From a bacterium BMS3Abin06 (GTDB lineage Bacteria; Nitrospirota; Thermodesulfovibrionia; UBA6902): a DNA stretch of 64,000 nucleotides. A program made the position numbers and the translations under genes. The notes beneath the pieces were generated by a model, which saw only the letters and a program-made list of their open reading frames with translations, did not search any database and was not told where the DNA came from. Location: contig BDSY01000032.1 in the NCBI GenBank assembly GCA_002897895.1, positions 1 to 64,000 of the forward strand. The letters are read 5' to 3'. This document shows, piece by piece, positions 322 to 53,857 of this stretch. Every line of letters starts with the position of its first letter. Positions within the stretch are counted from its first letter, which is position 1.

Positions 322-459
322 AGTACCGAGTTCTCTTTTAACATGTTGATTCTAAAGAAAACGTCATGACCACGCAGTTGTCATTCCCGCTTGTCGGGAA
401 TCCGGGAAAATCAAAGGGTTATAGATTCCGGACAAGCCGGAATGACAGAACTCGGTACT
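322..459. mobile_element. MITE-A copy 1 (138 bp, 13-bp perfect terminal inverted repeats)
   Basis: The element begins AGTACCGAGTTCT and ends with its exact reverse complement AGAACTCGGTACT. It is practically identical over its full 138 bp to 53720-53857. Identity extends a few bases outward (CTTAAG on the left, GTCGAGTT on the right). Inside is a second nested palindrome of the GTCATTCCCG...CGGAATGAC type. It has no coding capacity; an open frame through it is incidental. It lies directly between the group II intron end and a broken carbonic anhydrase gene. Confidence 0.75.
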
Positions 460-15130: not shown

Positions 15131-15154
15131 AACAGTCTCCTTTAATTGCTTTTC

Positions 15155-15291
15155 AGGTAACTACTCAGGTGCAAAGTGGCAAAGGCACACAGGCACAAAG
15201 GGTTACAGAAATACAAGAAAAGTTTTTCATCCTTTTTTTCACTTTGTGCCTTTGCCACTATGTGCCTTTGTGCCTGCCTGAATAGTTACCT
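15155..15291. mobile_element. MITE-B copy 1 (GTAACTACTCAGG ends)
   Basis: The ends AGGTAACTACTCAGG and CCTGAATAGTTACCT are inverted repeats with one mismatch. Inner arms (CAAAGTGGCAAAGGCACA / TGTGCCTTTGCCAC) pair as well, giving a long hairpin. Closely related copies are at 26301-26421 and 27236-27368, and a collapsed copy at 37015-37053. It is non-coding and lies between the SlyD-like gene and lgt, both on the minus strand. Confidence 0.7.
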
Positions 15292-15359
15292 TTTCAGTTT
15301 TCAATTTTTGCACAATTATAACACATAAAAGGTCATCGTCCATACCTTTCCGAAAGCCG

Positions 15360-22268: not shown

Positions 22269-22359
22269 TTAATATATTTCCTTCAGCTGTTAATTGTTAA
22301 CCGGCAACCGTGAAGGTTAGTTTTTAACTTTGTGCCTTTGCCCCTTTGCGCCTCGGCCG

Positions 22360-24110: not shown

Positions 24111-25375
24111 TCGTACACTTTCCCCATTGCGATAGTTTTTTCAACGGTTCCTTTCAGTTGCCATTTGTTAAACGGGGAGTTTTTCCCTTTTGACAAAAAC
24201 CCGGAAGAATCAACTTTAAAAGTTTTTTCCGTATTTATTATTGCTATGTCGGCATCAGAGTCAACGGTTAATGTTCCTTTTGAAATTCCCATTATTTTTG
24301 AAGGGGTTATGGTCATTTTGGTGATAAGCTGCTTTAAGTCCAGGATTCCTGATTCAACAAGATGAAGGCTTAGTGCAAAAGCTGTTTCAAGCCCTGATAT
24401 CCCGAATGCTGCTGCATCAAATTCCTTCCCTTTGTCATCAATATGGTGCGGGGCATGGTCAGTGGCAATCACATCAATCGTGCAATCTTTTAACCCCTGT
24501 TTAATGGCTTCAACATCCTGAGGGGTTCTGATAGGCGGATTGACTTTCAGATTTGTGTCATAACTTATAAGCGATTCATCAGTTAAAGAGAAATAATGCG
24601 GGCATGTCTCGGCAGTTACATTTATTCCGCGGGCCTTTGCATCCCGTATTAATTTAACGGAGCCTTCTGTTGAAACATGCGCAATGTGCAGCTTTCCGCC
24701 CGTAAGCTCACAGAGCGAAAGGTCTCTTGCCACCATTACTTCCTCGGCAGCTTTCGGAATTCCACTCAGGCCTGTGATAGTTGAGACAAAACCTTCATTC
24801 ATTACCCCGTCTTCCGACAATTTCAGGTCTTCACAGTGGGATATGACCGGGACGTCGAATATCTTTGAGTATTCAAGCGCCCGCCTCATTATAAGACTGT
24901 TTGTCACCGGTTTTCCATCATCCGAGAATGCAATGCAGCCTGTCTTCAAGAGCGCTTCCAGCTCAGTGAGCTCTTCGCTTTTCTGGGCAGTTGTTATTGC
25001 ACCGACAGGATAGACTGTGCATGCCCCCTCTCTCAAAGATTTTTCGAGAATGAATTCCGTTACGGTGATTGTATCGTTAACCGGCTTTGTATTGGGCATG
25101 CAGCAGACAGTCGTAAATCCACCCCTGACAGCAGCCATAGTGCCTGATTTTATTGTTTCCTTGTATTCGAATCCCGGCTCCCTGAGATGCGTGTGCATGT
25201 CAACGAGCCCCGGTATAACTATACAACCTGAGGCATCAATGATTTTGTTTGCATCCGGACCCTTGCCCTCTGGATATAATCCTTTGATCCTGTTTTTTTC
25301 TATCAGGATTTCATGAAAACCGTCCAGATTTTGAGAAGGATCGATTACCCTGCCGTTTTTTATCAGGATTCTCAT
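24101..25375 (-). CDS. pyrC: Dihydroorotase (class I)
   Basis: 424 residues of the amidohydrolase fold: [13 protein letters not shown] (metal HxH), [33 protein letters not shown], and VIATDHAPH with the catalytic aspartate. It cyclises carbamoyl aspartate. Length and motifs are those of the class I PyrC often found beside pyrB. Its start overlaps the pyrB stop (ATGA). Confidence 0.94.
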
Positions 25376-26292
25376 TTTTTAACTCCTGAAAGAAGATATA
25401 AGACAGCCATCCTTACAGCGAGGCCGTTGGTTACCTGCTCAAGGATTACCGACTGAGGTCCGTCTGCAACAGCGGATTCAATTTCAACCCCCCTGTTCAT
25501 TGGTCCGGGGTGCATGACAATGGCATCTTCTTTTGCCAGTTTAAGCCGTTCATCCGTGAGACCGTAAAGATTAAAATATTCCTCAAGCGAAGGGAGAAAC
25601 CCCTTGCTCTGGCGTTCAAGCTGCAGTCTCAGCGCCATTATAACATCAGCCTTTCTGATACCCTCGTCTATTGAATGAAAGACATCTATTCCCAGTTTCT
25701 CTATCCCCGCAGGCATCAGGGTAGGGGGGCAGATTACCCTTACCTTTGCGCCGAGTTTTGTCAATGCGTAAATATTTGATTTTGCTACCCTGCTGTGTGC
25801 AATGTCACCTATTATTGCTACTGTAAGCCCTTTAATTTTCTTTTTGCGGGATTGTATTGTAAACAAATCAAGAAGGGCCTGGGTCGGATGTTCATTGGCC
25901 CCGTCACCGGCATTTATAACAGATATATTTAAGAGATTACCGAGCAGATGCGGGACCCCTGATGAGCCGTGCCTTATTACCACAAAATCAGCGCCTAATG
26001 ACTGGATTGTAAGGGCGGTATCTTTTAATGTCTCGCCTTTTACTACGCTGCTTGTAGTGACCGAGAAATTCACGACATCGGCGCTCAATCTTTTGGATGC
26101 AAGAGCAAAAGAAGTCCTGGTCCTTGTCGATGGTTCAAAAAACAGGCTTACAACGGTTTTCCCCCTGAGCGGAGGAACCTTTTTAATATCCCTTAGAAGC
26201 ACGTCTTTGAAGCCCGCGGCAGTATCAAGAATGTGATATATCTCTTCAGGTGCAAGTTCTTTGATGCCTAAAAGGTCTTTTGAATTAATCAT
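25372..26292 (-). CDS. pyrB: Aspartate carbamoyltransferase catalytic subunit
   Basis: 306 residues from the ATG at 26292. Carbamoyl-phosphate site [12 protein letters not shown], then [38 protein letters not shown] longer frame (to 26340) would start inside the MITE-B copy, which is unlikely. No pyrI is present. pyrB and pyrR are separated by that MITE, so expression of pyrB from the pyrR leader must pass through a long hairpin. Confidence 0.94.
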
Positions 26293-26300
26293 GATATATC

Positions 26301-26421
26301 GTAACTGCTCAGGCGCAAAGTGGCAAAGGCACAAAGGCACAAAGGGTTACAGAAATACAGGAAAAGTTTTTCATCCTTTTTTTCACTTTGTGCCTTTGCC
26401 ACTATGTGCCTTTGTGCCTTT
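26301..26421. mobile_element. MITE-B copy 2, right terminal repeat missing
   Basis: It starts GTAACTGCTCAGG and runs with high similarity to 15157-15289 through the inner arms (GGCAAAGGCACAAAGG; TTTGCCACTATGTGCC). It loses the CCTGAGTAGTTAC end just before the pyrR stop codon (26425-26427). It splits the pyrR and pyrB genes, which are normally adjacent, and could attenuate or process the operon mRNA. Confidence 0.65.
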
Positions 26422-26424
26422 CAT

Positions 26425-26958
26425 TTACTGTCCACTTATCAAAACCGCCTTATCTTTCCTGCTGTCTTCTCCGAGAGTGACTTCCACAAGGTCGTTAAAA
26501 GATGTCGGAATATTTTTGCCTGCATAATCAGCCCTTATGGGCAGCTCTCTGTGCCCCCTGTCTATGAGCACGGCAAGCTGTATATGGGCAGGCCTGCCGA
26601 AATCTACAAGGGCATCCATTGCAGCCCTTATGCTCCGGCCTGTAAAGAGCACATCATCTACAAGGACGACTGTTTTATTATCAATTGTGAATGGAATCTC
26701 GGTTCTTTTTACTACCGGCTGCTCTGCTTTTGTATGGATGTCATCCCTGTAAAACGTAATATCGAGAGCGCCGACATCAATTGTTCCGCCTTCGATAGAT
26801 TGAATTTGTGATGCGAGCCTCCCGGCAAGAATAACGCCGCCTTTTTGTATGCCGACAAGGCAGAGGTTTTGCATGCCCCTGTTTTTTTCAATAATTTCAT
26901 GAGCTATTCTTCTGATAGCCCTGTTAATGTCGTCACTGTCAAGAATTTCTTTAGACAT
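26425..26958 (-). CDS. pyrR: PyrR bifunctional pyrimidine regulator/uracil phosphoribosyltransferase
   Basis: 177 residues: IRRIAHEIIEKN, CLVGIQKGG, and the PRPP loop VVLVDDVLFTGRSIRAAMDAL. PyrR senses UMP/UTP and binds a leader RNA loop to reduce pyrimidine gene expression. A matching binding sequence lies just upstream (27052-27070). It is the first gene of the pyr operon. Confidence 0.95.
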   Translation of the reverse strand: MSKEILDSDDINRAIRRIAHEIIEKNRGMQNLCLVGIQKGGVILAGRLASQIQSIEGGTIDVGALDITFYRDDIHTKAEQPVVKRTEIPFTIDNKTVVLVDDVLFTGRSIRAAMDALVDFGRPAHIQLAVLIDRGHRELPIRADYAGKNIPTSFNDLVEVTLGEDSRKDKAVLISGQ

Positions 26959-27070
26959 AAAAAAAACCTTCTCCTTCTGAGAGAGAAAAGGCGTTTAAGC
27001 GGGTAGAAAATCGGAGCTTTTCAGAGAAAGTGAGAATCAATCAGTAATTCCTTTCCAGCCTCTCAGGACC
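26959..27070 (-). promoter_or_regulatory. PyrR-binding leader with hairpin that covers the pyrR ribosome site
   Basis: On the minus strand GGTCCTGAGAGGCTGGAAAG (27052-27070) matches the PyrR-binding consensus (UCCNGNGAGGCU). About 60 nt later CCTTTTCT...GGAGAAGG (26991-26967) forms an 8-bp stem, followed by eight T residues and the ATG of pyrR. The AGGAG of the hairpin is also the only possible Shine-Dalgarno. The stem can thus be a terminator with its U tract against the start codon, or a translational sequestrator. The switch is inferred from sequence only. Confidence 0.7.
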
Positions 27071-27235
27071 AGTTTAAAGGTTAATGCTGAAAAAATATTA
27101 ATATAAACACAACGGTATTGTCAATAGAGCATATGAATTTATAGAATATGAATATGCAGTTGATTTTTATAATCACAGGGATTAATTTAATTAATATCGG
27201 ACTTAATGAATATATCTGATATAGTATAGAGAGGA

Positions 27236-27368
27236 GTAACTACTCATGTAGGCACAGAGGCACAAAGTATCAAAGGGACAAAGTAAAGGAAAAGGATAAA
27301 AACTTTCCTTGTATTTTTTTTAAACTTTGTGCCTGTGTGCCTTTGTCACTTTGAACCTGAGTAGTTAC
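27236..27368. mobile_element. MITE-B copy 3 with flanking direct repeat
   Basis: Ends GTAACTACTCA and CCTGAGTAGTTAC, inner GGCACAGAGGCACAAAG / CTTTGTGCCTGTGTGCC arms. The sequence GAGAGGAGTAACTA occurs at 27229-27242 and again at 27369-27382, directly bracketing the element, as a target duplication would. It lies upstream of the HDOD gene and 160 bp from the pyr leader. Confidence 0.7.
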
Positions 27369-27402
27369 GAGAGGAGTAACTATTAATGTATGGAGGGTTG
27401 AA

Positions 27403-37014: not shown

Positions 37015-37060
37015 ACAGTAACTACTCAGGAAGTCACCCTGGGTAGTTACTGTTTCTTTA
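37015..37060 (+). terminator. Rho-independent terminator with MITE-B-like arms
   Basis: ACAGTAACTACTCAGG (37015-37030) pairs over 16 bp with CCTGGGTAGTTACTGT (37038-37053), followed by TTCTTTA. The arms are the same sequence as the ends of MITE-B, so this terminator looks like a collapsed copy of that element. It follows the last DsrE gene. Confidence 0.72.
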
Positions 37061-53719: not shown

Positions 53720-53857
53720 AGTACCGAGTTCTCTTTTAACATGTTGATTCTAAAGAAAACGTCATGACCACGCAGTTGTCATTCCCGCTTGTCGGGAATC
53801 CGGGAAAATCAAAGGGTTATAGATTCCGGACAAGCCGGAATGACAGAACTCGGTACT
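53720..53857. mobile_element. MITE-A copy 2
   Basis: 138 bp, AGTACCGAGTTCT...AGAACTCGGTACT, the same as 322-459 as far as I can read. It is inserted between the GrdB-like gene and the ArsR gene and may have separated a former operon. Near identity of two copies 53 kb apart means recent movement or gene conversion. Confidence 0.78.

What the first reader, a model, noticed from the sequence alone, without database searches (positions are those of the whole stretch)
27229..27382. MITE-B family with target duplication, and a terminator made from its ends
Copies at 15155, 26301 and 27236 share GTAACTACTCAGG ends and CAAAGGCACA arms. The 27236 copy is bracketed by GAGAGGAGTAACTA on each side. The hairpin at 37015-37053 has only the ends, as if the middle was lost, and serves as a terminator; a fragment is also at 22325-22350. 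One copy splits pyrR from pyrB.
Basis: partly seen in the sequence, partly recalled or inferred. Interest (0 to 1): 0.5.

Follow-up and report, generated by a model that had tools for sequence, protein, structure and literature searches.

The report
IS66-type mini-transposons related to rRNA inserts
The repeat is a real miniature transposon, moved by a known kind of transposase (IS66 family, ISBst12 group) and shared by bacteria of several phyla; close relatives in other genomes still carry the small gene found in 23S rRNA 'intervening sequences', which suggests a way those long-puzzling inserts could move.

Summary
Confirmed and extended. The window (a Nitrospirota genome) holds three copies of a ~133-bp MITE at 15157-15289, 26301-26421 (right end decayed) and 27236-27368, an ends-only hairpin at 37018-37050 and an arm fragment near 22325. 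The genome has about 40 recognisable copies; 12 of 28 with both ends have exact 8-bp target duplications, and none has an exact 6-, 9- or 10-bp one.

The ends (GTAACTA[C/T]TCAGG) and 8-bp duplication are those of the ISBst12 group of IS66. Full-length single-ORF IS66 transposons with these ends and exact duplications occur in other Nitrospirota, and IS66 fragments in the sister genome end in GTAACTATTCAGG.

Five sister genera have pyrR and pyrB 30-50 bp apart with no MITE. Blocked transcription is not shown. The 37015 hairpin is a plausible terminator.

Unexpected: in Firmicutes and Desulfobacterota genomes the same ends and GGCACAAAG arms enclose genes of the 23S rRNA intervening-sequence protein family (PF05635), whole or truncated; some ORF-less copies keep only its first 3-12 codons. 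So the MITE is probably an ORF-less relative of IVS-like hairpin elements mobilised by IS66. The Nitrospirota core itself keeps no recognisable gene remnant.

The parts
15149..15156 (.). left 8-bp target duplication CTTTTCAG
15157..15289 (+). MITE copy 1, 133 bp, ends GTAACTACTCAGG / CCTGAATAGTTAC, GGCACAAAG-word arms
15290..15297 (.). right 8-bp target duplication CTTTTCAG
22325..22350 (.). fragment carrying arm words only (CTTTGTGCCTTTGCCCCTTTGCGCC), no ends
26301..26421 (+). MITE copy 2 between pyrR and pyrB; right end decayed; starts 8 bp upstream of the pyrB ATG
26425..26958 (-). pyrR (phosphoribosyltransferase domain)
25372..26292 (-). pyrB (aspartate carbamoyltransferase), ATG at 26292
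26959..27084 (-). PyrR-binding RNA element in the pyrR leader (RF00515, 47.4 bits, below the gathering score of 54; similar stretches upstream of pyrR in sister genera)
27229..27235 (.). left duplication GAGAGGA (7 bp; 14-bp repeat GAGAGGAGTAACTA if the element's first 7 bases are counted)
27236..27368 (-). MITE copy 3, 133 bp, 85% identical to copy 1 (older subfamily)
27369..27382 (.). right duplication GAGAGGA(G) followed by TAACTA
37018..37050 (+). ends-only derivative forming a 16-bp hairpin (37015-37053) after a DsrE-like gene; plausible terminator

Best explanation
It is a non-autonomous IS66-family (ISBst12 group) miniature transposon. A single-ORF IS66 transposase supplied in trans recognises the GTAACTA[C/T]TCAGG ends and inserts the element with 8-bp target duplications. 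The interior is a hairpin of short degenerate words (GGCACAAAG). In other genomes the same ends and arms enclose a whole or truncated gene of the 23S rRNA intervening-sequence protein family (PF05635, a four-helix bundle), and internal deletions of that gene have produced ORF-less copies that carry target duplications. So the MITE is most likely an ORF-less relative of intervening-sequence-like hairpin elements that acquired IS66 ends. Shown: ends, duplications, copy number, empty pyrR-pyrB sites, matching IS66 elements, PF05635 genes inside the same ends and arms, and deletion derivatives in one Firmicutes genome. Inferred: that IS66 moves it today, and that the Nitrospirota copies descend from a gene-bearing form.
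For: About 40 copies in the genome. Of 28 elements with both ends, 12 have exact 8-bp duplications, against 0 exact at 6, 9 or 10 bp. Full IS66 transposons with the same ends (up to 3 mismatches per end) and exact duplications: TAAAGGTC, GGAATAAA, GTCCATCC, AATTTTTG; the first two encode IS66 transposases by Pfam. Sister-genome IS66 fragments end in GTAACTATTCAGG. ISDge4, an actively transposing ISBst12-group IS66 element, has ends GTGACTACTCAGCA / GTAACTGCTCAGCA and an 8-bp repeat (PMC12898284). Empty pyrR-pyrB sites in five sister genera. PF05635 genes lie between both ends in 15 of 75 cases against 4 of 762 control ORFs, P about 1e-13; 6 of the 15 have duplications with at most 1 mismatch. 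In G071, 134-bp copies keep the first 12 codons of the gene and an 89-bp copy the first 3, with exact duplications. Inverted word-arms flank 49 of 69 PF05635 genes against 3 of 199 controls.
Against: No intact IS66 transposase with these ends was found in the window's own genome, and 5 of the 9 distinct other end-rich genomes searched (G001 and G067 being one genome) have no IS66 hit at all; the genomes are mostly fragmented, so this is weak. The core of the Nitrospirota copies shows no recognisable gene remnant. Only 15 of 75 PF05635 genes have these ends, and the longest ones (L232, L305, L237) lack clear duplications.
Confidence: 0.8

Rival explanations
1. Ordinary IS66 MITE only: a short element with IS66 ends that amplified in trans, with a palindromic core of no particular origin; the PF05635 genes in other genomes are chance passengers.
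For: Ends and duplications suffice to explain mobility. The Nitrospirota core has no gene remnant, and no covariation is seen in the hairpin (0 of 25 pairs).
Against: The same arms, not only the same ends, surround PF05635 genes in several other genomes, and ORF-less copies with duplications retain the start of that gene.
Confidence: 0.3
2. The intervening-sequence element is independently mobile and inserts into hairpin loops, both in 23S rRNA helices and in MITE loops, so the gene-bearing forms are nested insertions.
For: Known intervening sequences sit in rRNA hairpins (PMC4990558). MITE loops in G071 are visibly invaded by other word-hairpins. Most PF05635 genes lack IS66 ends.
Against: Gene and arms form one continuous conserved unit (GGCACAAAGGGAAATGAAAACATATAGAG) in several genomes, and I saw no duplication or clean empty loop between arm and gene. 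Other PF05635 elements (L239, L304) have 8-bp duplications at terminal repeats outside the arms.
Confidence: 0.2
3. RNA-level repeat: the copies are kept because the hairpin works as a terminator, processing or regulatory element.
For: Very stable folds, z -5.3 to -7.9; 37015 scores as a terminator.
Against: No compensatory changes; no T-run after the pyr copy; patchy bursts between genomes and empty sites argue for transposition rather than selected function.
Confidence: 0.08

Closest known systems
IS66 family, ISBst12 group (e.g. ISDge4, PMC12898284)
   Same: Ends GTRACT[A/G]CTCAG, 8-bp direct repeats, single-ORF transposase partner
   Different: No transposase inside; 63-134 bp in this genome; hairpin core of short words
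23S rRNA intervening sequences encoding S23/IVP proteins (PF05635; e.g. Coxiella IVS, PMC4990558)
   Same: Relatives with identical ends and arms carry the PF05635 gene in the loop of a long inverted-repeat stem
   Different: Located between genes, has transposon ends and 8-bp duplications; the window copies lack the gene
Bacterial MITEs reviewed in PMC10969869
   Same: Small, non-autonomous, multi-copy, terminal inverted repeats, target duplication
   Different: Near-identical ends and arms in several phyla, and a derivation route from a gene-bearing hairpin; the review text does not mention IS66

Membership tests
MITE | Short, no transposase, multi-copy | tested here: met
   63-134 bp, about 40 copies
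MITE | Terminal inverted repeats | tested here: met
   GTAACTACTCAGG / CCTGAATAGTTAC
MITE | Target-site duplication of fixed length | tested here: met
   8 bp; 12 of 28 exact
IS66 family (ISBst12 group) derivative | Ends match those of a full IS66 transposon | tested here: met
   L357, L359, L360, L363, L368; sister-genome fragments L261, L265
IS66 family (ISBst12 group) derivative | 8-bp duplication | tested here: met
   ISDge4 in PMC12898284
IS66 family (ISBst12 group) derivative | Mobilised in trans by the transposase | not testable with these tools
   needs an experiment; no intact partner found in this genome
23S rRNA intervening sequence | PF05635 gene in the loop | tested here: not met
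   absent in window copies; present in relatives with the same ends and arms
23S rRNA intervening sequence | Inserted in 23S rRNA | tested here: not met
   window copies are intergenic; a word-armed PF05635 insert in 23S rRNA exists in G071 (L235)

The most novel reading that the evidence does not exclude
Intervening sequences of 23S rRNA and scattered PF05635 genes belong to one class of mobile hairpin elements, built as a gene in the loop of short-word inverted arms, which spread between phyla by borrowing terminal repeats recognised by ordinary DDE transposases (IS66 here; a second type with GGTTCWTCTCCCAA ends, also 8-bp duplications), and which shed abundant ORF-less MITEs such as this one.
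Probability: 0.45. Interest if true: 0.8.

Novelty: new variant of a known kind. Interest (0 to 1): 0.6.

Why it matters
The origin and movement of 23S rRNA intervening sequences have been open since about 1990; PMC4990558 states that function and origin remain unclear and lists 'remnant of transposition' only as a hypothesis. Elements with definable ends, target duplications, a candidate transposase and deletion derivatives give a concrete, testable route. It could also explain many low-complexity intergenic hairpins in environmental genomes.

Tried and rejected
GxxExxY nuclease (PF13366) as mobiliser: absent from 6 of the 10 genomes searched. Resident IS66 of the other type (end GTAACATCTCAAAAAGTTGAG) as partner: different ends, and one copy is itself inserted in a MITE. 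Selection on an RNA hairpin: no covariation. Rfam: only a sub-threshold plant miRNA hit on the MITE, taken as chance. L173 1.5-kb pair as an autonomous element: it is two separate small elements flanking a cellular gene. Literature: no paper was found in the held open-access library that describes an IS66 MITE carrying PF05635, or word-arms around it; subscription journals are not held.

Full report
Observation. All listed features are in the sequence. The 133-bp element at 15157-15289 has ends GTAACTACTCAGG and CCTGAATAGTTAC and an exact 8-bp duplication CTTTTCAG. The 27236 copy sits in a 14-bp direct repeat GAGAGGAGTAACTA; 7-8 bp of this is target duplication and the rest is GTAACTA, which on the left is the element's own end. 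Why GTAACTA also follows on the right is not explained (chance, target preference or a remnant end). The copy at 26301 has lost its right end.

Family in the genome. A blastn-type search finds about 40 places in the 2.98-Mb genome. The 13-mer end occurs 75 times with up to one mismatch, against 7 for the reversed control. Of 28 elements with both ends, 12 have exact 8-bp duplications, two exact 7-bp, and none exact 6, 9 or 10 bp. Short derivatives of 63, 67 and 79 bp exist, so the ends-only hairpin at 37018-37050 is not unique.

Taxon. A named record (DRDE, 'Nitrospirae bacterium HyVt-268') lies in G067, whose hits coincide with those of G001 place by place; G001 is of the same genus as the window genome. 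The window is therefore Nitrospirota.

Mobiliser. IS66 transposase fragments in G001 end in GTAACTATTCAGG followed by flank. Searching 396 Nitrospirota genomes with that fragment finds eight genomes, several with full-length transposons whose ends are GTAACTA[C/T]TCAGG or nearly so, with exact 8-bp duplications (L357, L360, L363, L368); L357 and L360 encode IS66 transposases by Pfam. Firmicutes genomes G061 and G071 have IS66 elements with related ends. ISDge4, an actively transposing ISBst12-group element, has ends GTGACTACTCAGCA and GTAACTGCTCAGCA and an 8-bp repeat (PMC12898284). No intact partner was found in the window's own genome, and IS66 is absent from five of the nine distinct other end-rich genomes searched (G001 and G067 counted once).

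Spread. A pattern of ends plus arm occurs in more than 100 stretches of named genomes labelled Deltaproteobacteria/Desulfobacterales, Firmicutes, Nitrospirae and Nitrospinae, with up to 176 exact ends per genome and near-zero controls. Within Nitrospirota it is patchy: 63 of 396 genomes have a hit, a few have 20 to 82. This looks like bursts after horizontal transfer (inference).

Link to intervening sequences. In other genomes the same ends and GGCACAAAG arms enclose a PF05635 (23S rRNA intervening-sequence protein) gene, whole or truncated. Both ends with up to 2 mismatches bracket 15 of 75 PF05635 genes against 4 of 762 control ORFs. In G071, ORF-less copies of 134 bp (L419, L421) retain the first 12 codons (ATGAAAACATATAGAGATCTGCAAGTCTGGCAAAAA in L419; one base differs in L421), and an 89-bp copy (L420) the first three; all three have exact 8-bp duplications. 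Elements with the same ends but other word-arms (GGCTGTAGG, GGTTCACGG) also occur, and some are nested in each other. More widely, 49 of 69 PF05635 genes are flanked by inverted word-arms against 3 of 199 control ORFs and 6% of cross-paired flanks; one lies inside a 23S rRNA gene (L235). Two others carry different terminal repeats (GGTTCWTCTCCCAA-like) and exact 8-bp duplications (L239, L304). The control ORFs come from MITE-rich loci and are open reading frames, not annotated genes, and the related copies are not independent of each other, so the P values are rough.

What is not shown. The Nitrospirota copies have the same ends and arm words, but I found no gene remnant in their core; that they descend from a gene-bearing element is inference. 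Transposition in trans was not tested.

Window context. pyrR and pyrB are separated by about 135 bp here and by 30-50 bp, without the MITE, in five sister genera. The element starts 8 bp before the pyrB ATG, so the ribosome-binding region may be altered (inference). A PyrR-binding element probably lies in the pyrR leader (sub-threshold Rfam hit; similar sequence in sister genera). The hairpin RNA is very stable (z -5.3 to -7.9), but the copies show no compensatory changes, so there is no sign of selection on the RNA fold. At the 37015 site G001 has the left end followed by other words (CTGTCAGGGTGCAG) and then the contig ends: the site was occupied in the common ancestor and the interior differs.

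Verdict. The finding itself is an IS66 MITE, a known kind. Its relation to intervening-sequence elements is the part worth following.

Noticed in passing
window 379-447 and 53777-53845: Identical TGTCATTCCCGC... inverted repeats, apparently another repeat family.
   Followed up: no
G000 C100 near 54118 (L096) and C27 near 128065 (L037): An IS66 element of another type (end GTAACATCTCAAAAAGTTGAG) joins the interior of a MITE copy near a contig end.
   Followed up: partly
L239 1417-1905 and L304 917-1405: 489-bp PF05635-bearing elements with GGTTCWTCTCCCAA-type ends and exact 8-bp duplications AAATTAAT and ATATTTTT.
   Followed up: partly
L235 (G071 C16): PF05635 gene with word-arms inside a 23S rRNA gene, a true intervening sequence.
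   Followed up: yes
L263 2513-3409: A G071 IS66 transposon with 8-bp duplication TATAGCTC carries a second ORF matching DruA of the Druantia defence system.
   Followed up: no
L228 / L230 (G001 C48, G000 C60): PF05635 gene with GGCACAAAG-like words near its start, downstream of an ftsK-like gene, conserved between the two sister genomes.
   Followed up: no
L409, L411, L416, L422, L424: Word-hairpins of one class nested inside elements of another class in G071.
   Followed up: partly
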